DNA of 64,000 nt, from contig JADNRY010000138.1 in assembly GCA_015501585.1 (NCBI GenBank), positions 62,001-126,000 on the forward strand. Reading direction: 5' to 3'. Below, piece by piece: positions 1 through 55,098 of the stretch. Position 1 is the first letter of the stretch. The number at the start of each line of letters is the position of its first letter. This DNA is from Rhodocollybia butyracea. Taxonomy: Eukaryota; Basidiomycota; Agaricomycetes; Agaricales; Omphalotaceae. Both the position numbers and the translations under genes were made by a program. The notes under the pieces were generated by a model that did no database searches, was not told the origin of the DNA, and was given only the letters and a program-made list of their open reading frames with translations.

Positions 1-3000
1 CCTCCAATTCCTCCCTGCCAATCTGATCCTCAGTCGCAAGACTAGGCCCTTGCTCTTGAAACTCTACAGTATCCCGCAACGTTGACTTAATTACTTGTAT
101 CGCTTCCGTGATATCACCTTGAAGTCGGTTCTGAAGCTTTGTAAGAACAAGCCCCCCAGCTGAGAAGCATCGCTCACTTGAAACAGAGCTAGCCATAATA
201 CCAAGATAATCCAAAGCAATTGCAGTCCAGATGGACCAAGACGTTGCGAGTTAATCTATATTTAACTATCATTTGAGCATAACAAAAGAAAAAGTGTGAT
301 GACAACACTTACCGCCCACCAAGTAATGATTGACATGTCAGCTGGTAACGCTTCAGGACCACAGCCCATGAACTTGTTATAGTCCGCATGCCATGCTTCA
401 ATGTTTGAAGGAGGGGTTAAAGTTGATGTTTCACCCCGACAATGCTTATCAGTGAAGAGCCGCTTGGTCTTTGTACTCATCTTCACTGCCAACACTTCGG
501 GTGGCTGACTGGTACTGCCGTGAATCTTAACATAGTGTTTCTTGAACTCAAGTTTGCAAACAGTTAGCTCGACAAAACACAAGCATTTTAGCAGATATGA
601 CTCACCACATCTTCGACAAACATGTTCACTTCAGCAATCATATTATTATCCCAGTTTTCCTCAAAGTGTTTACGCTTTGCTGTAGGGTTGAGAACTACAC
701 AAGAAATATATGAATCAACAGTGACAAATATAGAACTAAAAAGAACAACAAACCTGTCGATATCACATACGCCTCGGAATCACTGGTCTTATTATAGTAC
801 TTTTCAATGACATTGATTGCGGCGGTGAGCGCAGGTTCATAGGCGGAATACGCATCATCATCCCGGCGGTCAAACCAAGCTGTATACAAGGCTTCCAAGG
901 CTGGAATTGCGAGGTAGAGGGATGGATAGCGATCTGAAGAAAATGATTGTTGCGCATCATCGGCGAACTATAAGACTATAAACATTGGTAGCTGGGATAG
1001 AGGAAATACACACCTCCAGGAGACTCGCAAACTCCGACAAATTCTCCCAGCATTCGTTATCCATTCGAAGTCTCTCAAGCTTAGCTTTCTTGGCTGCTGC
1101 TGGCTCGGTAGCAATCAACTTTGAAACAAACATTTCGACGGCCTAAAATCATGGTGAGCTACTGTTAGAATTGAGAAATATAATCACCTTGTGAAGCTGG
1201 GTGGCACGGTAAATCATATTAAAGGTTGATGACCACCGAACCTTCATATCGAGAATCATCATTAAGGGTGTCTTGGTGGCGTCTAGCGCTTGTTGAATTC
1301 GTAAGAATAACTCCTTCCACTGGCTTGATGATTTGACCTACGATAAAAATGTTATTGTATCAGAGAAAAAAATAGGGGTTAGCAACGTACCTTCACCGCA
1401 ATTGCCCAAATTTTTCCCACCACATCTTTAGAGTCAAGCTCAATGGTGTCATCAGTATCATGGACAGAGTAGTGTGCGGCCTTGCTCTGTGTCTTGATCA
1501 TTGACTGAGCCCCAAGATTAATCGTGTGCGCCAGGCAGCTAGGTGTGAAACATCATTTGGAGCAACAAACACTGACGGTGATAATCACTTACCGGACCAT
1601 AGTTTTTAATGCATCCCAAGGATTGCCGGTTTTCTCCTCGATTCGAACAGCCAGCTCCTCAAGCATAGTGAGGTTAGGAGCAGCGTTATCGCAAGTAACA
1701 AACCCGAGCTTGGACGAGATGAGCATTAAAGGAGAAATTTGGCAGTGGCAGTGTCAAATTACCTTCTCTTCGATCCCAGCCCTCACAATTACCTTAAATA
1801 AAGCTTTGCCCCATATGCTCACCGGAGTGACCACCATTTAAGCGGACGAATCCAATTACAGCAGCTCTCAACTTCCAAGAAGCAGTCCCGTCAACATCAA
1901 TCCAGTGAGCTGTAATGGCTAGATATGAATCGGTGTTGCTGGCTTGCCATGCGTCGCAAGTGAGATGAACTTTTCCTGGAGTTTTTTACTACACTGTGAA
2001 TATATTGAATTCAATTATTTTATAACATTGAACTCACAGCAAATAGCTTTTTCAGCTGTCCCATCCTTTTGAAGAACATTCGCATTATTCCAGCACGGGT
2101 CACTTTATGATCTGGAAGTGTGATGACCTCTTTAGCTGAAGACACAACATCAATCATATTCCGAAAACTTGGACGTTCAATGACACTCAAGGCCTTTGAA
2201 ATGGTGAGTATAATAAGCTATGTTCTGTAGATGAAAACTTCGAACACGGACCTGGTTTGTATCAACAATAAAGGTCCAAATAGCCTCATTCATACGGTGC
2301 TGAGAGTATGGGGTTCGCTTTTCTAGAGGAATGACTGCGGCATCAAGAGTACTTTGGCTTTTTCCAGCTTCTGCTGCTTCTTGTTGAGACTTTCGGTCTG
2401 CCAGGAGCTTTGATATGAAGTTATTCTTCTTACACCACTCATAGTATGCATTCTAGTGTCAGATTCATGTGAGAACTCTACCCAGATAGTCAGAATATGA
2501 TTACTAATGCACCTTATGCTGCAGATCCCTCTGAATATGCTTGCGTATCGTTGTACTATGGTCGGTGAGTGTTGGGTCTGATGTTGGAGAGAATCGCCTA
2601 CAATAAATTTAAGCATGGGTTATGATCATAAGCTATGTGGAGTAATGTTTTAGCTCACTTGCAAAGAATACAATCCACTAGCTTAACACTTCCACCGTTC
2701 TTCTTGCCCCTTTCCGACAATTATCGATGAAAGCAGAAACATCGTGTGTACTCTCTGTGTTACTTTCAGGTATCTCCTGGCTAATATTGGTAACCTGGAC
2801 ATTGAGTAGCATTCCATCTTCATCTCACTCATTCATGTCAAGTTCAATGATTTCTGGTGGTTAATTTCAAGAAAAATTGATACAATGCACAAGTTAATTA
2901 CATACCTTTTTCGTGGAGATCCTCATGCTCTTGCAATGATTCAGAGTCAGACCCGCCATTCTTGGCTCGCTTTTTTGTAGGTTGCGTCGAGGCTTTTTCA

Positions 3001-3149
3001 GGCCCAGGTTTTTGTTTCGTTGTATTCACTGATGAATTAGGTTCACCCTCATCGGCTAGTGCTGCTCGTTGTGTTGCTGTACAGCGACGCAAGGAGTCAT
3101 TGATAATGAGTTTTGGATCTGGTTTGTCTCGTTCCCGGGGGTTGGCCAT
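1..3149 (-). CDS. hAT-family transposase with BED finger, partial (C-terminus beyond left edge)
   Basis: This is a cut-and-paste DNA transposase read right to left in about ten exons with short introns. The ATG is at 3149 and the first exon is basic and low-complexity. A BED-type zinc finger follows: Cys pair in DCILC near 2660-2675, His residues in HIQRDLQH near 2515-2545. The RNase H-like core shows TCDAW (Asp codon 1953-1955) and CDNAAPN (Asp codon 1688-1690), then CLAHTINL near 1517-1540. The C-terminal hAT dimerisation region is clear at 1-240, with SSERCFSAGG followed by LTKLQNRLQGD. I saw no stop in the exons I traced, so the gene may be intact. The element's left end lies outside the window. 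Splice sites were read by eye, so exon limits are approximate. The family call is firm; activity is unknown. Confidence 0.88.
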
Positions 3150-3900
3150 GGTGACTCGAGTAGAGGTAGATCCGAAACTTGAAACTCCAATTTTGATTCT
3201 GGCCTGCCTGAAAAAAATTTACGCTGAACTTCGTTCCTACTGCCATGTACTCTGTTACTACCAAAGGCTGGGCAAGTCCTTCTGGACAAGACTGTGGTAC
3301 TTATATCCAGGATGCAGAAACTGAGATTACACACAAAGTAAGCCATATGCACCTCAGTCTTTGCTCAACTGAAAACTGTGACCTGTAGGCGATTACCAGT
3401 GACTCCAACAGCACTGGCGTTATACTTAATAGCTTGGGAGCTGTTATGCACTGCACCGCACATGCTCAAAATACTCTCATTCAGTGCAATGTAGATATGC
3501 AGGAGAGGGAACATCATATTCCAAAGTACACTCAAAAGTAAGCTTTCTATTAATGACTAACATCCAATCTGCTGATAAGCTGTAGATATCACCGCAAAAT
3601 CCAGTTGGCTAGAGCTCAGTTTGGTTACTTTATTTGTCGCCCCTTTGCTTTTTTGTGCTGCTCGAGTGTAGAGTCTGTAGACACTGATTCAGTACCTTCG
3701 TTACACAGTGTTTCTACAGCGTCTTGATAGTTTTAGTTACTGCTTACATCAGTGTGTACTGCTAATACTGTCTACCAATTTTGAATTCAGTAAAGGAAAC
3801 GGCTGGTTCCTACCAGCGAGCTTAGTGAATTGTTCATTACATCATTCGATTTCTTGAAAATTGAATGATGTCACTGGGTTTGTATCAGCGCTAACTTGGC
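3150..3900. other. upstream region of the hAT gene, no gene recognised
   Basis: Short open frames overlap both strands here, but none shows a domain or a convincing splice pattern. The stretch probably holds the promoter and 5' subterminal DNA of the hAT element. Confidence 0.4.
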
Positions 3901-3924
3901 GCTAATTCACCTCTGGCCCAAGGT

Positions 3925-4040
3925 CAAGACCCAGGGCCAGGGGCGAGCAAAATCCTGACCCCGGCCCTTGACCCTCTTTGACCCTCTAGAATGGTCGGGT
4001 CGGGTCGGGTCGGGTCAAGGGTCACTGACCCGGCCCTCCC
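3925..4040. repeat. GGGTC-rich tract, candidate hAT subterminal repeat
   Basis: Four to five head-to-tail copies of GGGTC lie at about 3982-4015. They are flanked by further GGCCC/GACCC words in both orientations (ACCCCGGCCC, TGACCCGGCCC). Clusters of GGGTCGGGTC are common just inside hAT termini. The tract sits upstream of the hAT transposase start, so it may mark that element's 5' end. The other end is outside the window, so the boundary is not proven. Confidence 0.5.
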
Positions 4041-4354
4041 CAACACTATCTACCACTGTCGCTGAGAACTCTCTTTTATTTCAATAGTTTCAATATTACC
4101 AAAGAAGTCAATGGTATGAGGAAAGAGCAGAATAGACTAGCTTACTGCAAAGCGTTAGTGAGAAACTGGTGTCGACAGGCTGAGCGGGAGCATGGTGAGA
4201 GAGCAAAAGTAAAAGTGTTGCCTGGGAAATGCCACGTAAACACTGTGCGCTGACAATCAGAAGTCCATCATCACATGAGTGTGAGTCTTGACAGTTGATG
4301 CTCACTGCCCAGTGGCAAGTATCAACATGCCTGCCCAGACCAACACTGTACAAA

Positions 4355-4545
4355 CATCATACAGACTTTTGTATAAACTTTGCCCAAACTTTGCCCAAGT
4401 ATCATATAAGTGTACAATGTTTGTAACTATCTTATAATTATTGTTTTCGTACAAATACAAACTTTGCACAAAACTTTTGTACAAACTTTGCACAAGTATT
4501 GTAGAAGTGTACAATGTTTCTAACATCTTATAACTATCGTAAAAA
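4355..4545. repeat. imperfect tandem duplication, AT-rich
   Basis: Two copies of a unit of roughly 100 bp. Each contains ACTTTGC, CAAGTAT, AAGTGTACAATGTTT and a TCTTATAA block, starting near 4360 and again near 4465. No coding potential is seen. Confidence 0.6.
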
Positions 4546-4556
4546 GCAGACTACAA

Positions 4557-4670
4557 TTAGGCGCCTTGGCCATCACCCGGATTAGGAAGTTCTTTCCTAG
4601 TTACAGAGTAAGTACTTTGCGCATAACTAGGAAAGAACTTCCTAATCTGGGTGATGGCCAAGGCGCTTAA
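4557..4670. repeat. foldback inverted repeat, 48-bp arms
   Basis: The left arm 4557-4604 and right arm 4623-4670 are reverse complements over 48 bp with three mismatches. They are separated by an 18-bp spacer, and the arms begin and end with GGCGCC/GGCGCT. This is a MITE-like or foldback structure. I found no target duplication next to it. Confidence 0.85.
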
Positions 4671-4797
4671 ATGGCACTTGTGTCGACACCATTCACAAGT
4701 ATTAGTACAAAGACCTAGTAAAATTGTAAGTAAATTACAATGAACAATGTTTGTAGTATAGTATTAGTACTTAGTAGTAGCAAAACTTGTTTTGATT

Positions 4798-4850
4798 GTA
4801 GACAGCTAACGGCGCAAGGCGCTTAAATTAGCGCCCAAACGCCGCACCAC
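4798..4850. repeat. degenerate copy of the TAGACAGCT...GGCG palindrome
   Basis: The sequence starts TGTAGACAGCTAACGGCG and continues through GGCGCTTAAATTAGCGCCC to CGCCG. It matches the left half and centre of the near-perfect palindrome at 10762-10825, but its right arm is cut short. Confidence 0.6.
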
Positions 4851-4859
4851 GAGATACAG

Positions 4860-6823
4860 TATTCTTCACATCTCCTTCAATTTACCTTGGGTTTAGGATT
4901 ACTCCTGCCACCTTGAGTGACTGTTTCTCCTTTATTTCATTCCACAGTTAGGAACTTTTTACTACTTTAAGCACTGTGCTCTCCTCTCAGGTGTGCACAC
5001 CACAAAAGCATCTTATTATTACAAGTTCCCAGTGATAGGGCTAACTATGGGTATGTGGGCCGAAGGCAAAACAACACCAACACAAACACACAATCAGACT
5101 TTTGAGTTCTGGGGTAATTCAAGATTGATCAATGGACTCTATTGCACAAAATGCTCTATAGTCTCTGGGGTTCTCTTTGTACTTTAACTATTCCTTTCAA
5201 AACAAGACTCTGGACTTCAAAACTTTCAAACAAGACAAGACTGGGACTTTAACTTTCAATCAATCAACAACAACAACAACAAGTGCAAGGTCTCTTTCTT
5301 TGTCTGTTCAAATGCAATCCAAGTTCATTCAAGTTCTGTCAGAAGCAAAAGCACTCTGAATAATTCTGTTCTTTCTTCTGCCAGAAGCACCCTATTACTA
5401 CAAGCTTGACAGCAAGCTTGTTAACCTGGGGGGGGAGGGATGCCTGCTCTTTCTGGAGGTCTCCCCTTGATTATATACCCAAGGAAGCCAAGAGTATTGG
5501 TAAGGGGAGCATGTGCTCTGCATACGAGGCTGTATGGCATCATATGGTCAATTCTATTGTGAAATTTTACATCAGACCCGGAAACGGTGAACACAGACCG
5601 CCCCATGAGGCCGTTTCACTCTATTCAGTTCCATTTCGGATCATAGATGTTCAATCTCAAGTTCTTGGTATGTTCTTTTTCATTTATTCTTGATTGTCAG
5701 TACTTACAGTGACTTATGACTGTAAGTAAGTGTGAACCAGTAGTTCACAGGTTCTATAAGTGAGGGAGGACTTGAAGAACGATGTATCTCAGCTATTCTC
5801 GCTTCGATAATTGTCATCTAAGCCCTGCAACATCAAGTTTCATTCTAATCTTTGAAATACTGCTCCAAGGGGACAGATCTCAGTTCTATGCTGGAGCATC
5901 GGAAAACCACCCGGTATCGGGACGTTGTACCGTATTTCCAACTTGTATAAACTCGTTTCAAGGGTTCATAAATTTTCTAAGGTCTCTGATTGTTGGGCAT
6001 TGAAGTATGAGCATATCTATAGAAATATAGGTATGTCTCCTCCTAGTACCTACTCAAATCTCGTCTCTATGGTCGGGGGACTCCTGTATCATCATGCTAT
6101 GCAATTATTTGAAAATGAGGCATTTATCCCAACAACTGATGTAACCATGTTCTGGGACCGGAGAAGTACCCTGGATACCGGTATTTCGATGCCGTCGGAT
6201 GCCTATGCACTGCTTTCGTTCGTTCTAGTGCTTCAGGGTCTCTGGTACATTTTATTTCTTGCCCCAGATTGCCCTTTTGCATGTTCTAAGTTTTATACCC
6301 TTAGTAAGGTATTATCATTCTGAGTAAGCATTTCCTATGGAAGGGAAAGCTTGTAATCGAGTGCTAACTAGTGAAACGATGTAAGAATCGTCCAAACGGT
6401 CCGCAACATCGAAGGTTTCATAGAAAACGGCCTCCTGGTGAGGTAGTTTCAAGTAAATCAATTATATCAAATTCAGAGTATGAGCCGAAATGGCTGATGG
6501 TTTGAGATCAATGTTAGGCCGTCGTGCGCGTGAAGCGGTTGGCAATACAGGCATTGTACGAGCGTGTCCAATTTGGGTTTCAGTGAACACAGCACTGGGA
6601 GAAGGTCTCCAAGTGATATGAACACTACGTATCATGCAAGGACTATCCAGTAGTGGGCTTTAAGTCTAGTTTTAGACTCAAAAAGTCTTGGGGCATATCA
6701 CCAGTCTATAGTAGTAGAGTATAAACACAGTAGATTTCTGCGTGTTTGTTTGAAGTAGTATAGTATACAAATAGTAAAAATTGGTTCCTTACACTGAATA
6801 CTCTACTGGCTTGAGATAAGCTT
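4860..6823. other. unassigned region with two modest open frames
   Basis: Open frames at 5406-5693 (plus, 95 codons) and 5925-6323 (plus, 132 codons) are the longest here. Neither matches a family I recognise. The second contains a hydrophobic stretch, LLSFVLVLQGLWYILFL. They could be exons of a decayed gene. No promoter, RNA gene or transposon end was identified. Confidence 0.25.
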
Positions 6824-7443
6824 GAGTTTGCTAGAGATGTCCACGAGTCCAAGTCTTGACAGGTACTCACAGGTAAGATCCGTGGGAAAACTTGTTGTAT
6901 ATTGCCGATGTGGCAACTCCGGAGATTAGTTAGCCAGATCAGTATGTTCATATGTCCATGTACTTACTCATCGTATTAGCAATACTATACAGTATGTACA
7001 GTATATAAGCTTGCATGTAGTACCGTAGTACTCATGCGTTTGCGAGGTATCTAATACCTTGTTCAACTGCACTAACTACTTGTGTTGGATCCCAGGACTG
7101 ACCGCCTGATTGGACACTCATCGGATTCCCTAACAGAAATCCCACAAAACTCGCAAGTATCTGACTCGCAGATCCCAAGACCCGTTTCCCACGGGTCACA
7201 AGTCAGGCTTTGGGAAATTTCGGTTGACTTGCCTGACTCATATATTTATTTATTGGTGATCAAAACTTACAGTAATTAACAGTATCACAAGCTTAGGACC
7301 CGTGACTACGTCACGGAAAAGCACGCAGTGTTGATACAACAACATTATATTGAAATAGAGATATTTAATCTATTACTCAGTCCAATAGAACCTCTGGATA
7401 GACAATATTCTGAGTTGAACAGTCATTATTACCTGTAAGAAAT

Positions 7444-10326
7444 TTAGAAACCATTCAGCACATTGGAATGGATAAACCTACCCTCAGGAAAAATTGCCTT
7501 GACTCCTTGCTTTGTTGTACTACGTGAAAGAGCCACATATAGTTGGCCATGTGTAAACACTGAGGACTGCAAATTGAGACCCACTTGCTTCACTGATTGT
7601 CCTTGAGCTTTATTGATAGACATTGCAAATGCAAGACGGACAGGAAATTGGCGCCTTTCAAGTTTGAAGGGCAAATCCAGATTAGAAGGGGTGAGTGTTA
7701 TGCGTGGAATAAATGCAGTTTCTCCTGCGTGATCACCACCCAAAATTCTGACTTGTAAAACTCGGCCTGTAAATTGGATCACAATAGCTCGAGTACCATT
7801 ACAAAGGCCAGCTGTAGGATCCAGATTTCTCAAAATCATGATAGGTGCTCCAATTTTCAATTTTAAATGTGCAATGGGCAGTCCTGAGCCATTAATACTA
7901 TTCAGAAATTCTACTGGATATTGAGATTCCCCATCAGGTGCTTCCTCAACCACTGCCTTGTCCGCAGAATCAAATGTTTTGATGTCTCCTTGCATAGTAG
8001 TCAAACATTTAAAATTGAGGCTATCAACTTGATCATTTTTAGGGCAAAGAATGGTACGCTCAAGAAACCATTTATCATGATTGGCCTGAGGTTGAATATG
8101 ATCCAATCCTGGATAAATTGCAGATATGAGGTCACCTACTGTTTGGCCACACTTCATACTTGGATCCAGCTTAATTTGACTATGGGGAGAATTTATCTTG
8201 CCATGGCCTACTTCAAGTAGCCATTTAGCATAATTTCTATCTTCTTCAGTGCCACTATCCAATCGTTTATTTTCTTTCAAATGCAGGATTTCTATATCAC
8301 GCCACAATCTGGACCGCTGAATACATTGACCAACAATTTGCTCTCGACCACCTTTTCGCACCACAGGCAGAATTTGTTGAAAGTCACCACCAAACACTAC
8401 AGTAACTCCACCAAAAGGTGCATTATTATCACGGATATCCTGCATTGTTAGATCAACAGCCTCTTGGCAAAAACGATCCTGCATTGGGACTTCATCCCAT
8501 ATAATCAGACTTGTTTGACGCAACAAATCTGCAAGAAGACCTTGCTTGGGCACATGGCAAGTTTTCCCATCATAAAGCTCAATTGGAATCTTGAATGTGG
8601 AGTGTGCAGTACGCCCCTTTTTTAGCAACAGTGCTGCCAACCCAGATGAAGCACAACATAGAACAATCATACTTTCTGCACGGAGAAAATGACATAGTGT
8701 ATTATAAGTAAATGTTTTTCCTGTTCCAGCAGGACCGTTGAAATGAAGTCGCACATGAGCACTATGTAAAGAGTTAGGATTTTCTCGCTCAAGTTGAGAA
8801 ATTCGCTCATATGCAGATTGATAGAGCTCAATCCACCGATTGTTACGTCTTAAGCAATCTGATATGGTTTGCATAACTGGTTGGTGTAGACCTGTACCAT
8901 TGCCATGCTGTGCATTGTTTGCCAGGCGCTGTTGCAGAGCAGTTTCTGGAGCCACAATATAAAGCTGAGCATATACAGGATTTTTCCCTACTTCAGGCAA
9001 TAAAGAGCCCATAGCATGCCATAGTTCTCCTTTAATCTTAAACTGTCTAGGACCAGTTGTAGGAAGCTCAGGATCATTATGTGGCTGAACATTTAGCCCA
9101 ATTGAAACAAAAGCAAATGCAGCATTGTAACTGCGGATATTCTCTAGAAAATGTTTTGAATCATGATCCCTCCCATCAAATAGCTTTTCAAGCTCCACAG
9201 GAGGTTTTGCTAACCTGGGCAGCTGCACATTTCCTGATTTACAGCATGTGCCAAACTTAGGGTTTCTCAAGGAAGATTTAATGAGTCTCTCAGCAGCCCA
9301 ATGCAAAGCATGACAAAATGGACATTCTACATCCATTTTTCCCAAGTTGAAATGATTATACACTTGATCATCTACCACTGGCTGAAGGGCAATTGGAATT
9401 TGGGAAATTTGTGCAGGCTCATGCTCATCATCAGTAGGAGGGTCATCATTACCTCCCTGATGAATTTGCTCATTCTGTATATGCTGCATCTGAATAAAAT
9501 GCTCCTGCATATTATTGAAATAATCCCAGTCAAAATTCTCATGCTCAGGCCCTTGATTATTTCCTGGTGGGAGACCATCATTATCATTTGGACCCTGATT
9601 TTGAAGCTCAGGCCCATGATTATTCTGTGGAGGTACATGTTCATTCTCATTTTGGAGCTGACCCTGCTCATTATGAATTTGGCCTTGGCCGTCCTGTCTG
9701 TGATACTCAAATGGGTCTTGGTTCTGATGGCCTTGAGGTACATGGCCATGGCCACGCCGGCCACGGCCTCGGCCTCGTGTAGCTCTTACTGGATGTGGAG
9801 GAACTGCCAAAGCATGAGCACGTAAATGAGCAGGTAGATTCAAATACTAAATTGAATCAAAAATTCAGAACAGAATATCAAACTTGTAGAATAAAGCACC
9901 AACCTGATTCTGAGCTGCTAAATCTTGAGGTGGAGGCATCATGGGTGGATTAGGTACTGGTCCCCCTCTTCCACGGTGACGCAACTGAAGGGGAACCAAA
10001 GGAGGTAGTCCCCGCACTGCAGCAGCAGTCTGTTGCGTTAAAGCTAAAGGTTGACCATTGTAATCAATGATCTGAAAAGGGTCTTGTTGTTGAGGATCTT
10101 GCAAGGGATCATGTCCAGGGCCAGCAGCATGGCCTTGAGGTAAATTCAGTTGAAATGGAATAGGAGGGCCAATGTGATGAGGTTGTGGAGTACGCCGGGT
10201 CTCAGGACTTCCCAGAATCCGGCCCTCTCGTTCCCTCTCTCGCTCAGCATTCCTATGCCTTTGAGGAGTGTTAGGTGGAGAGTCCCTTGAAAAGTTATAC
10301 ATCAGAAACAATGAATATAGAAACAT
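7444..10326 (-). CDS. Helitron-type PIF1-family DNA helicase lacking the Rep domain
   Basis: Two exons: 10326-9904 (141 codons) and 9846-7444, joined across a 57-nt intron in phase 0, give about 941 residues with no internal stop. The N-terminus is low-complexity (ERERE, PPQ, HNQGP runs). A Cys finger typical of Helitron proteins (CPFCHALHW, about residue 316) is followed by the region ending KHFLENIRSYN and YAQLYIV. A complete PIF1/SF1 helicase follows: Walker A GPAGTGKT about 512, Walker B IIWDE about 592, GGDFQQILP about 627, SINKAQGQS about 884, and YVALSR near the C-terminus. In canonical Helitron proteins a HUH Rep nuclease sits between the finger region and the helicase; here the two are joined directly. 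The gene lies inside the hAT-like element. It could be a deleted Helitron gene or a captured helicase. Confidence 0.9.
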
Positions 10327-10761
10327 TCTTCAATGCAAATACTATGTACATATAACACAGTCAATCAAAGTACTGTCCTTTTTTAAGAAAAAAAAACAAA
10401 TCAGTAAAGCAGGAAGCACAGAGGGCACAGAAAGCAATAACATACTGGGGACAGTAAGTTGCAAACAGAGGGAAAAGAACAAAGAAGTGAAAAACATGAG
10501 GTAGCCTCATGGATTCACACAGGATCAATAGTAGTATTAAGACCGCATAGCTATTTACAGTATCCACAACCGGTGAAGCGGCGATTTAAAAGTATCAATT
10601 AATTACACAGCCGCAGGCGGTCCACAGGAACCGCAAAGCGGCCGAAACGCGGCTAGAGTTGCTTAGTCACTATTACCAATCAAATTTAAGCGCCCCGACC
10701 GAATTTAAAGTATAGGATATTTATTGTAGTACTTAACAAGTACTGCCACACATGTTTGAGG

Positions 10762-10825
10762 TTGTAGACAGCTCACGGCGATTGGGCGCTAATTTTAGCG
10801 CCCATTCGCCGTGAGCTGTCTACAA
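10762..10825. repeat. near-perfect 64-bp palindrome
   Basis: Arms 10762-10792 and 10795-10825 are 31 bp each with one mismatch and a 2-nt centre. The ends read TTGTAGACAGCTCACGGCG. A TA dinucleotide lies symmetrically near each end, so a tiny TA-flanked MITE is possible. A related half-copy lies at 4798-4850. Confidence 0.85.
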
Positions 10826-11133
10826 TACAAAGCCTAACTGTCAGTACATTTTTACTTCATAACATAGTATGAAATTAGTGTAGCAAGATAGTACAGGTTT
10901 TTGATAGCATTATACACTGTACAAGCAATGTATGCAAGTAAATAATGGTAAATACTTGTGACTATAGCTCTAATTACTTGTTTAATAGACAGATCCACAA
11001 GTACTTGTGAGTCAGTGACCTGTTTCCCACGAGTCAGCCACGGGTCACAAGTCAAGCCTTATAGGCCACAAGTACTTGCGCCACGGGTCGCAAGTATACT
11101 TGACCCGGACTTATGGACATCTCTAGAGTTTGC

Positions 11134-11445
11134 CTAAGTCTGCCTAAGTTGTAGGTTTATACTTAAGTGATTCAAGCTGACCTGAGTAGCATCAGAATTC
11201 TCAAGACTTGAGTAGCCTGAGTCAAAGCTATCTACCCAAGTCAACTTGAGTTAACCTGGGGTTTGGATCAGAATCCTCAAGTTCACTCATCAACTTAAAT
11301 GACCTGATTGGCCTAAGTTGAAGCCATCTACCCAAGTCAGCTTGAGTTAACCTGGGGTTGGAATATTTACTCAAGTTGACTCAAGTCAACCTGGGGTTGG
11401 AATACATACTCAAGCCAGCTCAGGTTGACTTAAGTAAATAAGACC
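11134..11445. repeat. imperfect tandem repeats (CAAGT / ACCTGGGGTT units)
   Basis: Three to four diverged units contain CTACCCAAGTCA, TTGAGTTAACCTGGGGTT and GGAATA...ACTCAAG. They begin right after the right target duplication of the hAT-like element. The target word GAGTTTGC resembles the repeat itself, so the element probably inserted into this array. Confidence 0.65.
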
Positions 11446-11801
11446 TTTCCTGATGGAATTGATTGGCAAACACCAACCGCAACTTTTGTCTGGGACACTT
11501 GCAACTATCCTTCACACTTCAACAGAACACTGTTCAGCCTTTCTTGCACCTATGACCTTGCCGCTGACATTTCTCTTGCCTATGTCGAGAAAGCTATTGG
11601 TGTCTCCACTTTTCCGTCAAGTACCTCAATTCCTAGCCAACAGCTCCGTTGTCACTGCCACAAATCAAATCAAGTTCATCTATACTGCCTTCAACAGGCT
11701 GTCATGGATTTATGCATTAGCAAAGCCAAGGGGGTCCAAAGATTTTAGCGCCCGACGGTGGGTAGGTTAGTTAGTCCACTGACCAGTCTGCAAAAAAAAA
11801 A
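11446..11801. other. no gene recognised
   Basis: A 105-codon open frame (11453-11770, plus) has no recognisable domain. The stretch ends with TTTTAGCGCCCGACGG, which resembles the centre of the palindrome family at 10762. Confidence 0.3.
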
Positions 11802-12315
11802 TTGACACCCAATATATTGACCTGTTTTGGGCACTTTCTGGAGCATTTAGCATATAGTACTTGTGCAGAACACGGTTTCACGGGCGTAGCTACAGGCGCA
11901 TGCACCAGAATTGCAATTTTTGCTAATGTATGGTATAAGCACTGCTGCCACCTCGGCACATTCAGCCCGAATCGGTATGAGGTGCCCCCTAATCTCACTG
12001 AGGAGAACAAAGACCTACCTGAGACGCATGAGAAATGGTGCCAATTCCATGTTCAACAGGTGTGAACATACAAGGTTAGTTAATTATTATTTATGAACCT
12101 TGTCAACTCATAAATCACTGCTTCAGACACTTCGGTAATCCTCTCCAGCAACGAGATGGGCATCAATCCAGAGTCTGCTGCTGCATCTAATATTACATTG
12201 AATGGTGGTCCAAATCAGGGGGAACCATCACGACGCTCATCAAGAAAGCAAACGCGGATGAAATTTAATGACTCTTTCAAGTGCATTTGTGATATTACAA
12301 TCACCAAGGCATCAC

Positions 12316-12575
12316 TGAATATAACACGCCCTATGGGCACACTCCTTAAGAAGACCGGTGAACACGACAAATAGGATACTATTGTGTGTACAACAGTGTA
12401 AAAGACTAACTAGACTCTTAAGTAATTGTACGATACTTATAGTAGTAACAGATTTATTATATAATTAATAATAAATAGAATGATAAGACAGACCGTTTGG
12501 TCTATCGGCGGCGTCTAGGATGACCGTATTGCCGGATACAGTCAGTGGTGATTATGGATAGGTGGAGGCGTTACA
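12316..12575 (-). repeat. 3' LTR
   Basis: About 256-260 bp, TGTAACGCC at the 5' end and CATAGGGCGTGTTATA near the 3' end. It aligns with 13376-13589 and with 56059-56312 (opposite strand). The exact 3' end is uncertain by a few bases. Confidence 0.8.
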
Positions 12576-12909
12576 CCCTCCCCACCAGATTAACATCAGG
12601 GATGTGAATCGAAAATGGTAATGACATCATCACCATCCAAACCATTTTCATTTGGTTTAACATAGAATGATCCCGCATCAAGTACGGGATTTAATTGATG
12701 CGGCGCATCAGATTTTCGGACTTATCCAAATCAAATGATAGTGGGGCGTACCACCAGAGCATGATTTGATTCGGAAATGTCCGAATGTTCAACGTGCAGA
12801 CTCAGGAGTTTCCGAGTAGTGCTTGAGGGGGATTCTCAGTGAGAATCCGACTTGAGAATAAGTAGCAATGCCCAGGTAAGGCATATTACCTGGGCATCTG
12901 AATCCAATA

Positions 12910-13372
12910 ATAATTTATTCGGAAGGTTTATCCTTTCCAATTTTTAAGGAGGTGTCCTCCTCAATAGGCTCAAGAACATATCCAATGTTCTCACTATCTG
13001 ATTCATCGGGGTATTCTGATGATTTTTTGTCATCTCTATTCCTAGATGAGACATAATAGTTAGTGAGGGCCGTGTGGTCCTCAATGCGTGCGACGGCTCT
13101 GACCATCACTTCTAATTTGGCATACTCCAGAACGATCCCCTTGTTCGTGAGTTGCCTGATAATATTGAAGGGTAATCCTCAATGAACCATTTCTGCATTG
13201 GAGCATCCGTGATGCCCATCGTGTAAGTGAGGAATAATAATCCCTCACACCCATATTGGGTGAGTACTCAATAAGGTCAAACTGCCATGCAGCTTGATGA
13301 ATGGTCGTTGCTTGGATGCAACGATCAAAGACACCAATAATGGTGCCTTCAAATGTCCACTCAAGGACAGTG
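12910..13372 (-). pseudogene. gag fragment of the Ty3/gypsy-type element
   Basis: On the minus strand it matches the decayed gag at 58330-58680. WTFEGTIIGVF, RCIQATTIHQAA and QFDLIEYSP are readable, then frame is lost, and a downstream tail (12915-13109) stays open for 64 codons. It is non-functional. Confidence 0.75.
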
Positions 13373-13375
13373 CAG

Positions 13376-13589
13376 TGAACACGACAAATAGGATACTATT
13401 GTGTGTACGACGGTGTAAAAGACTAACTAGACTCTTAAGTAATCGTACGATACTTATAGTAATGGATTTATGATATAATTAATAATAAATAGAATGATAA
13501 GATAGACCATTTGGTCTATTGGCAGCGTCTAGGATGACCGTATCGCCGGATACGGTCAGTGGTGATTATGGATAGGCGGAGGCGTTACA
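13376..13589 (-). repeat. 5' LTR, 3' end deleted
   Basis: Aligns with 12362-12575. It stops at GTGAAC, where it runs straight into gag-derived sequence, so about 45 bp of the LTR end are lost. Confidence 0.8.
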
Positions 13590-13810
13590 CCGAGGCCAAA
13601 AAAAAACAGCGCTGACAGTAGTTGAATGTCAGAGGAAAGGCTGCAAAACTGTTTGGGTATGTTTCCTGTCACTCAAGGCCATTTAAGTACTAATGGGATC
13701 GACATCATGTGCAGTACCATATGGAGTGTGTTGCACTATTACCATACTAAAAAATGGACCTGCGATGCATGTACTAGCTCAAAGCAACGGTAGAGAATAG
13801 CGTGGGGTCT

Positions 13811-14599
13811 TATCTTATCTTGATTTACTATATATATAGCCGTGGGAATGATTACATAGTTAGTTAGTCCGAGGGTAGAGCCCAGGGAAAAAAAAATCGA
13901 CGTCTGGTCATGAATTATATTTTTTGAACCCCCTTGACTAGAATTCAAATGATCTCAAAGACCCCCCAGCAGATAAAAACAACAAAAAATCAGATATTCA
14001 TATATCTAAGGACATGGGGCCCTAGATACATGTTCTGGCATAAATCACGCATAAATTGAAGGCAAACGATGAAGAACTGAGCAAGCTAGAGTTCTTATGG
14101 ATTTTACTTGTTTTGTGTGTGATTTCTCACAAGTCCAAACTATTTCGCAAACGACAATAATTCAGTCAGATCTTACCGCGATTTGGGCCCCACTTGCCCA
14201 AGGCCCCAAGCTAGATACCTTTGGATCTTGTGTCCAGTCAAGATGATTTGTCTTGCTGCATCTTTGAAAAAAAAATTAGTGCGCAGTATGGAAAATGTGG
14301 CTTCAGGAACGGATGGAGCCCGTTCAATCAACTGCTGTTAAAATAAGGGTGGTCCCGATACTCATTTATTATAAAAACAACCCGTTTTGCTTAATGGGAC
14401 TGGCATGTCCTCAAGCATCAAGTATCCCTCGTCTTGATCCCCAAACACACTTCTTTGGCAGACCACAATGTTTTTCAGACAACGAGACATCAGTAGCCAG
14501 AACCCCTGATGCAAATTGTAGTAAAGAGTTTTACTCCAAGGTTACAGTAAAAGAAGGATAAGCATATTACAGTAACACAGCTCATGAATCATTAAAGGG
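13811..14599. other. no gene; 3' part duplicated downstream of the second NLR
   Basis: Nothing recognisable in 13811-14280. From about 14300 the sequence aligns with 37720-37960 (shared CACTTCTTTGGCAGACCA and AACTGCTGTTAA), which marks the left edge of the segmental duplication. Confidence 0.5.
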
Positions 14600-17500
14600 T
14601 CAGTTAAATTGAGGAGTGTAGCAATCAGCCCAGTGGATCCCAAGTTTAGAATTAGTAAATGACACTTTGGTGGTGCCATTACAACTTATAATCAGAGAAG
14701 TTGGGGAGGTGTAAAGTCCAGGATGGAGATGGCTGGGGAGCCACAGGAGAGGTGCAGAACCAGAGACTGATACTAACCAAGAGTCCTGGCCAATGCACCA
14801 TGAGAGTGGATATTTTGTGGGTATATATAGGGACCGGTTGGCAGAATTTGTTTCAAGATGAATTTGAATATCAGATGGCCTGTCCCATATGGCCATAATT
14901 TGGTCATCTGACCCAGAGACAAGCGGTTGGCTATCAGGAGAGAATGCCACTGATGTGACCCTGTCAGTGTGGCCTTCTGACCTTTGCGTTTCCCTGCCAG
15001 ACTGTATATCCCAAATCCTCACAGTCTTGTCACCTGAGCCAGATACAACCTGCTGACTATTAGGAGAGAATGCTAGTGATGTTACCCACTGAGTGTGGCC
15101 CTCCAACCTTTGGATTTCCGTGCCAGACTCCGCATCCCAAATCCTCACAGTCTTGTCATATGACCCAGAAACAATCTGCTTGCTATCAGGAGAGTATGCC
15201 ACTGATATCACCAACCCAGTGTGGCCCTCCAACCTTTGGACTTCCCGGCCAGATTGCCTACCCCAAATCATCACAGTCTTGTCTTCTGACCCAGAAGCAA
15301 TGTGCTGGCTATCAGGAGAGAATGCCACTGATGTGACCCAGTCAGTGTGGCCCTCCAACCGTTGGATTTCCCTGCCAGACTGCCTATCCCAAATCCTGAC
15401 AGTCCTGTCATATGACGCAGAGACAATCTGCTGGCTATCAGGAGAGAATGCCACTGATGTGACCCACTCAGTATGACCCTCCAACCTTTGGATTTCCCTG
15501 CCAGACTGCCTATCCCAAATCCTCACAGTCTTGTCATATGACCCAGACATAATCTGGTGGTTATCAGGAGAGAACGCCACTGATGTGACCCAGTGAGTGT
15601 GGCCCTCCAACCTTTGGATTTCCTTGCCAGACTGCCTATCCCAAATCATCACAGTATTGTCATATGACCCAGACACAATCTGCTTGCTATCAGGAGAGAA
15701 TGCCACTGATGTGACCCAGTGAGTGTGGCCCTCTAACCTTTGAATTTCCTTGCCAGACTGCCTATCCCAAATCCTCACAGTGTTATCACCTGACCCAGAC
15801 ACAATTTGGTGGCTACCAGGAGAGAATGCCACCGACGTGACTGAGTCAGTGTGGCCTTCCAACCTATGGATTAACATCTCCCCGCCATGCCTATCCCAAA
15901 TCCTCACAGTCTTGTCATATGACCAGAGACAATCTGGTGGCTATCAGGAGAGAATGCCACTGATGTGACCCAGTGAGTGTGACCCTCCAACCGTTGGATT
16001 TCCCTGCCAGAATGCCTATGCCAAATCCTGACAGTCTTGTCATATGACCCAGACACAATCTCCTGGCTATCAGGAGAGTATGCCACGGATGTGACCCAGT
16101 CAGTGTGGCCCTTCAACCTTTGGATTTGCTTGCCAGACTGTCTGTCCCAAATCCTCACAGTCTTGTCATCTGACCCAGACACAATCTCCTGGCCATCCCA
16201 AGAGAATGCTACTGATGTGACCAGCTCAGTGTGGCCCTCTAACCTGTGGATTTCCCTGCCAGACTTCCTATCCCAAATCCTCACAGTCTTGTCACCTGAG
16301 CCAGACATGATCTGCTGGCTATCAAGAGAGAATGCCACTGATGTGACCAACTCAGTGTGGCCCTCTAACCTTTGGATTTCCTTGCCAGACTTCCTATCCC
16401 AAATCCTCACAGTCTTGTCATATGACCCAGACACAATCTGCTGGCTATCAGGAGAGAATGCCACTGATCTGACCAAGTCAGTGTGGCCCTCCAACCTTTG
16501 GATCTCCCTGGCAGACTGCCTATCCCAAATCCTCACAGTCTTGTCTTCTGACCCGGACACAATTTGCTGGCTATCAGGAGAGAATGCCACCGATGTGACC
16601 TGGTCAGTGTGACCCTCCACCCTTTGTACTTCTTTCCCAGACTGCCCTTCCCAAATTCTCACAGTGCAATCCTCTGACCCGGACACAATATGGAGGCCAT
16701 CCGTTGAGAATGCCACTGATACAACAGTTCCTGTGTGTCCTGTCAAGCTCATCAACTCTACTTCCGCTGTACCATTGAACTCGATCAACGGAATATCCCG
16801 AAATTGATTCCTCCAATGTGTTAATAGCTTTGACCCAGGTGAGCTTCCAGCCAAGGATGATATATACAGATGTGCTGTGTAAGTGCTTGTAGGATGCGCG
16901 ACGAAAGACAATGTCAATTTCAGTGCATCATAGACATCTGACAACAGCTGCTGCTCATCTTCTGTCTAGATCTCTGTTAGTTCAAATATGCCGCATTCAA
17001 ATCTGGTCTGCTTACCTTTTTGAGCCAGAGGCGAATTTTGTTCAATGCTGCTCCACACCTTGAAGATTCCTTGAGCAAGCTCATTACCTCAATCCAAAAG
17101 AGGAGTTGGTTTCTCAGGAACTTCTCAAGATCCTTCTGCACTTTGTCCCATTTAGGCTCATTGTATGGGCAGATGTTAAATGGTTTGCCCAGTATAGGCA
17201 TGCATAAACAAGTCCTTCACTGATCTCCTTGTGTACCCGTTCCACAAGGTTCTCCACTTCATTGTCAGGTATGAAAGAAGACGCCAAGCCACATATATTA
17301 AATCTAAGGGATAACTGCATCACTTGAAAGCAGTGGCGAGTGAGGACATTATGCTGATGAGTTATGTCACAGTATAAATCCATCCTCTGATCATGATAAA
17401 CAAAATTGGACCTCCCTGGATTGAACATGAAATCCAAGAATGATGTATGGTACCATTCAATCTTGCCATTGGAAATCCTTAAGACAGCATGAAGGCATTC

Positions 17501-19499
17501 TAGCACTTTGGAAATTGTCTCTTGAATCTCTTCGATATGTTCCTGATCATGACCCAATATTTTTGCAAGCCCCTCTACAGATACTCGCTCCTCAGTGCAG
17601 AGTATTGAATGAAGGATATCCCGTCGAGTGTTATATGCATCGGGGGTGTCACGTAAAGGGATAAACAGATCTGTCAACACCTGTTGGTACATGCTGTCCA
17701 CCAAATCCATCCCTGTGGTATTGTCCGACCAATTCTCAACAAGCTTCTTCAGGAAGTGGAGTTGTTCAGACCTAGTGAGCCGGCTGTCTCGTTTACAGTA
17801 CCGTATTGCAGTGGCTGCCGCAATGAAAAGCCCATCAGCGTTCCTAGCAATGTCCTCCAGAATGTTATCATCATCATTGCTTCTCAGCTCATGCATTTCG
17901 CTCTCGAGGTATTTGAGAATATCCTTTTCCACCTCTGCCTTCGGAATGGTGTACAACTCACACACTGCATCTGAGGGGAATGACCCACAGAGTTCCTTCA
18001 GCTGTGGATTAGGCCTACTGGTGATCAGGAATTTGATACCCTGTAAATGCTGCTGCTGTACTTCCAGTGTTTCCAACAGCATTTGAAGAAATTTGAACCC
18101 GCCCTCTTGCTCAATTTCATCAAGTGCATCCACAATTACCAGGACAGGTGGAAGATCGGGAGAACGGGTCACTATGGCGTCCTTCCACGGTTGAACAAAC
18201 AGCACCTCCATTTGTTTTGAGAGGACTTCCATAGCCAACTCAGTTGGTGTACGACAAAGAGCAGATGCAAAGGCTCTGGACTGCCAGCACAGCTGGTATA
18301 CAATGGTTGGTATGATGTAAACTTGTCGTCTTGCGTCATCAAATTTGCGAGAGCAAAAAAAGGTAAGTGGACGCGGAAAACCCTTTGTGGTGTCAAAGTG
18401 GTGTGCTATGGTCCGAGCAATAGTCGATTTTCCGGATCCACCCTCGCCATCCATCCAAAACACGGGTGAAGAGGTTGGGTCAGAAGCCCAGGTCTTTATT
18501 TTCTCCAGCACAGAATAACGGGTTCCATCTGTGCATATACTTTGATCAATTGACCCAGGATCAACATCTGTTGGAGATATATTCCATTGTGCATGTTTAG
18601 AGCGAACCCAATTGTTCAAGAGCAACCGCTATCTTGTGAATTAGCTGCTCAATTAAAACAAGCTAGATGCTTTGACATACCTCAATATTGTCTTTGATAC
18701 CTTCCAAATTCAATTCAATGCACAGTGAGATATCCAACTGAAGGATAATTTTTAGCTCAAACTTCAGACATAAATGGGATAACCACTGACTTGGAATTTC
18801 GTTGTCTGTTCCTGAATCTCTCTCACAAAACGCGCAACCCGGGCCCTATTCTCGGAGCTTTTGAGAACGGCTTTCCATGTTTGTCTACCACAAATATCTT
18901 GCATGGCGTGAAGGTTGTCCCCAAGAACCCTGGCAAATTTTACTTATTCAGACCCGGTTATGAGCTGCTGCGCGCGTGACATACTTTACAAAGTCTTCAG
19001 CAGCAGACTTTATATCCCTGTATACAATATGTACTTAGGAGACTCGATGTAGCTGAATTGGGTAAATCACGCACGAGGACACCTTGGTTTCATCAAGCCT
19101 TGAGTCCACAGCTTCCAGACGGCTCTTCACGAGATTACAAAGCTGTGAAAGATCCTCTTTGTTATCTTTCACAGCCTATCCAATATTCAATATATATATT
19201 GCTGCCATAATGCTCGAGCTACTCACGTTGGCAATATCCGTGAGGACATTTACCGCTTTGACTACATTACCTGCGATCGGTACGCCATCCAAACACCTTT
19301 CCAACCCACTCAGCACAATCTGTGCACCACTGGATGCCATCTTCCACGGAGATGGCGATCCAGGTTGCGGTCCAGGTTGCGATTGAGCGGATCCTCGAGT
19401 CGATTCAGTATGTGATTTCGGAGATGCTGCCCGCGATGAGTTCGAGCGGAAGAACTGGCGGAACTTATCTCGTGTTTGTGAACGCTGAGGTTGCGACAT
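14600..19499 (-). pseudogene. NACHT-WD40 NLR-like receptor, copy A (HET-E type), frameshifted
   Basis: NACHT-WD40 proteins of fungi act in non-self recognition and heterokaryon incompatibility. Here an N-terminal helical region (exons 19499-19227, 19175-19083 and smaller ones) leads to a NACHT domain in the exon ending near 18616. Walker A GEGGSGKST lies at about 18430-18455 and Walker B LVIVDALDE at about 18118-18143. Fifteen WD40 repeats of about 42 residues follow, then a conserved tail ending in CYTPQFN at 14600. Two single-base losses break the frame. One lies near 17170 between NACHT and WD40, where copy B reads on. The other lies near 15923 inside WD repeat 7. An alternative in-frame ATG exists at 19544. 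Apart from these lesions the gene is complete, so assembly error cannot be excluded. Confidence 0.85.
14880..16755 (-). repeat. 15 tandem 126-bp WD40 repeats (copy A)
   Basis: Each unit encodes GHTxxVxSVAFSPDSxxIVSGSxDxTVRIWDRQSGxEIQRLE-like sequence. The units are strongly similar in DNA. Differences collect at the residues after GHT and around the SGSxD turn. Confidence 0.9.
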
Positions 19500-53880: not shown

Positions 53881-54690
53881 AATGGTGGGTACATAAGCCA
53901 GTAATACAAATCATTGTGAAAGCCAGAAAACCAACTTCCTGTAGGATGTGTCACACCCTGGCCATCATCTGTTAAAGCTACTCCTAATCAAGTATTATAT
54001 ATCCTGCTTGGGCATTTGCCTCCTTTCTTCTGGCTTTTGGCCTATATTATTTTCTTACTGTGTCGTAGCGATTAACAGTGTTGGAGTTTGTCATCTATCA
54101 TCTTCATTATACTTACTATGGAACAGTCTTCTCACTTGCTACTATCTATGGAACATTCTCTTGGTGTAACTACTGGTATGTGAACTAGTTGTACTATCTT
54201 TATCCTGCCCACTTGCCATTGCTTTATTATCATGCTATGATCTAGTCTTGCTTGTTTATCTTGCGCTATGTTCTACTCTTGTCCTCTAGCTTACTCTCAT
54301 TCCATCTCTGAACACTTCACATGTTGTACTTATTATTATTAGCCTACTGGATTTGTATTCAAGCTCTGTATGTACTTGTGGAATATCAAGTTGTGTCTCT
54401 GTTAGTGTCTGCATCCTTTCTCTCCCCTGCACCTGTGTTGCCAAGGCCTTACTGAAGTGCCAAGTGCACTGTCTCTCTTATCAATCAATTTCTAATAAAC
54501 AGCCTTACAGAAATAAGTAGATTTATTTTGTTCCACCACAACTGAGGGACACTACTGGCATTATCCAACACGCTTTTAATAATTATTAACTTGTTATAAC
54601 AAGTCTAGAGATTTTACAATTATTTCTTGCTATTATCAAGTGTACATAATGACAGGTGCCACATAATTAAATGCCCATCAGGGATTCTCA
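53881..54690. other. 3' flank of NLR copy C, no gene
   Basis: T-rich DNA. AATAAA-like words (TCTAATAAACAGCC, about 54491) may be polyadenylation signals. Nothing else is recognised. Confidence 0.4.
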
Positions 54691-54691
54691 T

Positions 54692-54800
54692 GTGCGTATG
54701 GCAGAGTGGTTCTGCTGCTGTCAACGGGTGTCAACGGGATCACGAAGGTGTGATCAGCAGGTTGGTAGTTCAATCCTTACTGGTAACATTTTGTTATTCT
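54692..54800 (+). repeat. tRNA-like sequence (SINE or tRNA pseudogene)
   Basis: An A-box TGGCAGAGTGG (54699-54709) and a B-box-like TAGTTCAATCC (54766-54776) lie 57 bp apart, followed by a T-run (about 54798-54806) that could stop RNA polymerase III. The acceptor ends do not pair, so this is not a functional tRNA. Confidence 0.5.
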
Positions 54801-54805
54801 TTTTT

Positions 54806-54885
54806 ATTAGGTTAGGTTAGGTTAGGATTAGGGGTTTGCGCCGCCGCGGGGGGCTCGCGCGAAAGTTAGAGGTTAGGGTTGGGGA
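54806..54885. repeat. telomere-like TTAGG repeats and GC-rich patch
   Basis: Four TTAGG units run head to tail, then ATTAGGGG. A GC-rich patch (CCGCCGCGGGGGGCTCGCGCG) and TTAGGGTTGGGG follow. The match to the fungal telomere unit TTAGGG is imperfect. Confidence 0.55.
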
Positions 54886-55098
54886 TATTTTGACAGCGTA
54901 AACGAGGCTTTAGCGTGCCTGCCGGATTAATGATTACAATATGATAATTATAAACCTGTCTTATTATAACAATAAAAAATCATACAAGCTAATACCTACT
55001 AATAGCAAGTAGATAATTATTATATCTGTGTCCTGAGCTCCAACTGGAAGGAAAAACAATTAATTTGGTTGTCTTGCACTGATATCGATTGTCTGAAC

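What the first reader, a model, noticed from the sequence alone, without database searches (positions are those of the whole stretch)
6824..11133. hAT-like element with exact 8-bp target duplication whose only gene is a Helitron-type helicase
Seen: inverted ends TAGAGATGTCCA... at 6832 and 11125, flanked by identical GAGTTTGC on both sides. Known: 8-bp duplications and short TIRs mark hAT transposition, whereas Helitrons have neither. Inference: a Rep-less PIF1 helicase has been captured by a non-autonomous hAT element, or a Helitron fragment inserted into one and the composite then moved. An intact 941-codon helicase inside it suggests cargo that is recent or kept by selection.
Basis: partly seen in the sequence, partly recalled or inferred. 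Interest (0 to 1): 0.87.

Follow-up and report, generated by a model that had tools for sequence, protein, structure and literature searches.

The report
Helitron nested in hAT-like MITE
A short, common fungal DNA transposon was hit by a second, rolling-circle transposon that carries a helicase gene; a near-identical second copy of the region without that insertion shows two ordinary, separate events, not capture of a helicase gene by the first element.

Summary
In detail: 12-bp inverted ends and an exact 8-bp duplication GAGTTTGC bound window 6832-11125. The capture reading does not. The ends belong to a MITE family (338 exact ends per strand, control 2 and 1). The helicase lies in a separate 3430-bp insert (7288-10717) with Helitron anatomy: 5' TC, 3' hairpin plus CTTG, between A and T. 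Its 5' end has 15 other exact copies, each with the 3' hairpin 1.05-2.0 kb away. Decisive: a second copy of the region on the same contig (97.9-99.9% identical where probed) has the MITE and its duplication without the Helitron, an exact empty site. Repeats reading GAGTTTGC once, without the MITE, also exist. So the Helitron entered a resident MITE; nothing indicates that the composite moved. The gene (947 aa as modelled) is a RepHel gene lacking its Rep part in frame. CTTG-ended Helitrons and Rep-less helicases are reported in Pleurotus (PMC4289320, passages). Ordinary nested transposons; low interest.

The parts
6824..6831 (.). left copy of the 8-bp target duplication GAGTTTGC
   Evidence: site reads GAGTTTGC once, without MITE, in L077 and L078
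6832..7287 (+). left part of the hAT-like MITE, TIR TAGAGATGTCCA; holds a further insert of about 254 bp at about 6892-7145
7288..10717 (-). Helitron of 3430 bp, 5' TC end at 10717, 3' CTTG end at 7288, lying between A and T (a shared base leaves the boundary uncertain by 1 bp)
7288..7321 (-). Helitron 3' end: hairpin CCGTGACGTAGTCACGG followed by 12 nt that end in CTTG
7377..10326 (-). Helitron gene, 3 exons (introns 9903-9847 and 7481-7433, inferred from splice signals and homology; start uncertain), 947 aa: low-complexity N-terminus, RepHel N-terminal region, PIF1 helicase; Rep part missing in frame
8736..8738 (-). Rep deletion junction (LHFN|GPAGTGKT), at positions 1980-1982 of the insert
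10718..11125 (+). right part of the MITE, inverted TIR TGGACATCTCTA at 11114-11125
11126..11133 (.). right copy of the target duplication GAGTTTGC

Best explanation
Two successive, independent insertions. (1) Shown: a hAT-like MITE inserted into a repeat-derived sequence and duplicated GAGTTTGC. (2) Shown: the region exists in two near-identical copies on the contig; whether by real duplication or by an alternative haplotype joined at the contig end is open. (3) Shown: in one copy only, a Helitron lies exactly between A and T of the MITE. (4) Shown by homology: its gene is a RepHel gene lacking the Rep part in frame. (5) Inferred: since it has no Rep, either it was mobilised in trans by Rep from another Helitron, or it lost Rep after landing.
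For: The second copy L076 aligns to 6132-12335 with 3 substitutions, one 8-bp indel and the 3430-bp insert as the only differences; it keeps the TIRs and GAGTTTGC on both sides. Eight fetched MITE loci (L009, L012, L013, L020, L021, L022, L025, L026) run through the insertion point unbroken; the others are too diverged there to tell. 10 of 10 copies read (of 15 others found) start TCCTATACTTTAAATTCGG in different flanks and end AAGCTTG; the next base is T in 10 of 10, and the base before the 5' end is A in 8 of 10. Hairpin: 27 + 29 matches with up to 3 mismatches, control 0. RepHel homology on both sides of a gap of roughly 740-760 aa. C611, 98% identical from the junction to the 3' end, continues upstream into the RepHel linker.
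Against: The 3' end is CTTG, not CTRR. In 2 of 10 copies the base before the 5' end is T or G, not A. No Rep-coding member with these ends was found, so the mobilising partner is unknown. No hAT transposase with these TIRs was found, so 'hAT' rests on ends and duplication length. The second copy of the region lies at a contig end, so it may be a joined haplotype; only about 9 kb of it was read, and shifts of offset between the probes show further indels of about 0.7 kb in unread parts.
Confidence: 0.97

Rival explanations
1. The Helitron entered the MITE elsewhere and the composite then moved here by hAT transposition.
For: Intact TIRs and an 8/8 duplication would permit it.
Against: The second copy of the region has the MITE at the same site with the same duplication but no Helitron; no other copy of the composite was found (such counts are lower bounds).
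Confidence: 0.02
2. The helicase is a gene captured as cargo by the hAT element itself and kept by selection.
For: A long intact reading frame.
Against: The gene sits inside a unit with its own recurrent ends and an exact empty site; 8 nonsynonymous to 1 synonymous difference against C611, which lacks bases at 3 places.
Confidence: 0.01
3. The Helitron was in both copies of the region and left one of them by precise excision.
For: PMC4289320 (passage) mentions footprints of somatic Helitron excision in maize.
Against: The Helitron-free junction is also the state of MITEs at eight other loci, and L076 shows no footprint at the site.
Confidence: 0.02

Closest known systems
HELPO2-type Helitrons of Pleurotus ostreatus (PMC4289320, passages seen)
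   Same: CTTG 3' end, subterminal hairpin, AT insertion; putative autonomous copies encode a RepHel of about 1400 aa in one ORF
   Different: this copy lacks the Rep part and lies inside a MITE; no direct sequence comparison with HELPO2 was made
Rep-less helicase group of P. ostreatus (PMC4289320, passage seen)
   Same: Helitron-type helicase without the Rep initiator
   Different: that group is described there as apparently not belonging to a specific Helitron family; this one has defined Helitron ends
hAT MITEs (general knowledge)
   Same: short TIRs beginning TAGAG, 8-bp duplications, hundreds of copies of the ends, the short fetched ones without long open frames
   Different: no autonomous partner identified here

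Membership tests
Helitron | 5' TC and 3' CTRR ends | tested here: inconclusive
   5' TC met; CTRR not met: the 3' end is CTTG in the window and in 10 of 10 copies, as reported for HELPO2
Helitron | hairpin shortly upstream of the 3' end | tested here: met
   CCGTGACGTAGTCACGG, then 12 nt to the end
Helitron | insertion between A and T without target duplication | tested here: met
   empty site; T after the 3' end in 10 of 10, A before the 5' end in 8 of 10
Helitron | Rep (HUH) plus helicase in one protein (autonomous copies) | tested here: not met
   helicase and RepHel N-terminus present, Rep part absent; so a defective or non-autonomous Helitron, not an autonomous one
hAT superfamily | 8-bp target duplication and short TIR | tested here: met
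   that TAGAG fits the hAT end consensus is recalled, and other superfamilies with 8-bp duplications exist (recalled)
hAT superfamily | cognate hAT transposase | tested here: inconclusive
   46 hAT dimerisation-domain matches; 1 kb beyond 20 of the 46 scanned with up to 2 mismatches: 0 matching 3' ends, 0.6 per set in base-shuffled sequence

The most novel reading that the evidence does not exclude
A helicase-only Helitron: a derivative that lost the Rep nuclease in frame yet still moved recently as a unit with an intact helicase gene, relying on Rep supplied in trans. It landed after the two copies of the region separated (0.1-2% diverged where probed), and no donor copy was found in the assembly.
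Probability: 0.2. Interest if true: 0.35.

Novelty: new member of a known kind. Interest (0 to 1): 0.14.

Why it matters
It is a clean case of nested transposons in which the pre-insertion states of both elements survive, and it shows that a Helitron of this fungus inserted recently. It also warns that a perfect target duplication round a foreign gene does not mean that the gene was captured. If the Rep-less form really moved, it would bear on whether Rep and helicase can act from separate Helitrons.

Tried and rejected
Rejected: capture by hAT, mobile composite, selection on the helicase (reasons above). Not supported: the Rep deletion as a widely shared architecture. Of the 120 listed homologues (of 1178 found), 48 have matches on both sides of the junction; 47 of these have 290-778 extra residues there, and the remaining one (P0027) aligns through what looks like the ordinary linker and does not share the junction; the other 72 lack a match on one side and say nothing. 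Microhomology at the deletion: compared by eye only with diverged relatives, nothing clear. Looked for an autonomous hAT partner: the two long open frames of L010 (a 3885-bp pair of ends) have no hAT domain; 1 kb beyond 20 of 46 hAT loci gave no 3' end (L090 holds a separate copy of this MITE beside a hAT gene). Loci with a single end or no usable pair (L001, L002, L014-L019, L026-L028) were left out of the duplication count. Three genome matches to the 5' end with 2 mismatches were not looked at.

Full report
Observation. The genome (95.6 Mb in 1381 contigs; the best-scoring protein relative is from Amanita muscaria, so probably a basidiomycete, which is inference) holds 338 exact copies of the end on each strand against 2 and 1 for the reversed pattern. 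Of 14 other loci fetched with both exact ends, 11 have a perfect 8-bp duplication, 2 have 7 of 8 and 1 has 6 of 8; they span 0.4-5.7 kb, 12 of them 0.4-1.7 kb. They were taken from the first 100 places listed, long pairs preferred. This is a MITE family of hAT type by its ends. No transposase with these ends was found, so 'hAT' is by anatomy only.

The helicase is in a separate insert. In eight fetched MITE loci, element positions 405-456 run straight on into 3886; the rest are too diverged at that point to tell. The 3430 bp between, window 7288-10717, read on the minus strand, start TCCTATACTTTAAATTCGG, end in a hairpin CCGTGACGTAGTCACGG followed by GTCCTAAGCTTG, and stand between A and T. 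The first 19 bases occur 16 times exactly in the genome, ours included, and 3 more times with 2 mismatches, with no control match. Each of the 15 other exact copies has a 3' hairpin in the same orientation 1.05-2.0 kb away, two 5' ends at C492 sharing one (coordinates). Both ends of 10 of these 15 were read: all 10 have the same start, the same AAGCTTG end and T next; the base before the start is A in 8, T in C886 and G in C1179. In C1179 the flank is itself another CTTG end. These are Helitron hallmarks, except that the end is CTTG and not CTRR. The Pleurotus ostreatus family HELPO2 is reported with CTTG (PMC4289320, passages seen).

Both pre-insertion states exist. The contig repeats itself: six probes of 801 bp and two longer stretches (about 9 kb in all) between C423:145700 and its end at 165182 match C423:58016-81010 in direct order at 97.9-99.9%; shifts in offset show further indels of about 0.7 kb in unread parts. 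In that second copy the MITE is present with GAGTTTGC on both sides and no Helitron. Over the 2782 bp read there the only other differences are 3 substitutions and one 8-bp indel. It may be a true duplication or the other haplotype joined at the contig end; either way it shows the pre-insertion state of the Helitron site. The flanking sequence is repetitive (its first 471 bp have dozens of copies). Two other copies of the repeat (C572, C1256) carry the flanks with GAGTTTGC once, 1 mismatch in 44, which is the pre-insertion state of the MITE site in a paralogue; two more (C477, C782) match with 3 mismatches and read GAGTCTGC once. So the order is MITE, then separation of the two copies, then Helitron.

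The gene. With two small introns (57 and 49 bp, inferred) the gene encodes 947 aa and ends in NIVYPEVLLD, like its relatives. Residues 170-369 of its main exon match residues 1-187 of the Amanita muscaria RepHel P0001 (46%), and residues 342-787 match 925-1367 (58%; the first two dozen of these lie before the junction and the overlap is probably spurious). The part between, roughly 740-760 aa and by inference the Rep nuclease, is missing. The nearest relative in the genome, C611, is 98% identical from the junction to the 3' end and has the ordinary linker upstream of the helicase. C1094 and C1140 (99.9% identical to each other over the stretch compared) hold the N-terminal half at 79% DNA identity and run on past the junction into the part that ours lacks, up to about residue 278 of P0001. 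So this copy is best read as an internal, in-frame deletion of a RepHel gene. None of the 48 listed homologues (of 120) that match on both sides shares the junction. Differences from C611 over that half: 8 nonsynonymous, 1 synonymous, 2 non-coding, and 3 places where C611 lacks 1, 1 and 11 bases; about 1007 and 301 sites. The numbers are small and compatible with no selection, and C611 is itself broken. The intact frame needs no selection: the insertion is recent.

How it works (inference). Helitrons move by Rep-driven single-strand transfer (general knowledge; also a passage of PMC4289320); a copy without Rep must borrow it. Other Rep-coding Helitrons exist in the genome (48 matches to PF14214, 46 of them over the curated cut-off, many in long open frames), but none was shown to have these ends. 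Whether Rep was lost before or after landing cannot be told from one copy.

Verdict. Novelty: a new member of known kinds. Whether this particular nesting is in print was not searched beyond, of which listings were seen; of papers only passages of PMC4289320 and PMC12730594 were read.

Noticed in passing
L009 (C212:46380-52290) and L012 (C246:16659-18516): Two other MITEs carry inserts (about 5.0 and 1.0 kb, no similarity to each other at the threshold used) at the same A|T position (TTTTTAA|TAGCATT). The L009 insert begins TCCCCGACT and has the inverse AGTCGGGGA plus a hairpin near its other end, like Helitron2/Helentron anatomy (recalled). These MITEs look like repeated Helitron targets.
   Followed up: partly
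window 54559-55040: Pieces 89-100% identical to the interior of the L009 insert: a related element in the window.
   Followed up: no
C423:58016-81010 (window about 1-19010 and the stretch before it) and C423:145700-165182: A direct repeat of at least 19 kb, 97.9-99.9% identical where probed, running to the contig end: a recent duplication or a joined haplotype.
   Followed up: partly
window about 6892-7145: A further insert of about 254 bp inside the left part of the MITE, with AAAAC on both sides, absent from the MITEs compared.
   Followed up: partly
C492:74581 and 74792; L059 (C1072); L073 (C1179): Head-to-tail Helitrons: two 5' ends 211 bp apart, and 5' ends directly or 2 bp behind another CTTG end.
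   Followed up: no
window 80-226 and L075: A hAT dimerisation-domain match, with fragments of a Copia-like LTR element upstream (by eye).
   Followed up: no
window 14600-18625: A NACHT-like gene and long WD40-repeat frames on the minus strand (domain names by eye), with similar sequence at about 38-40 kb.
   Followed up: no
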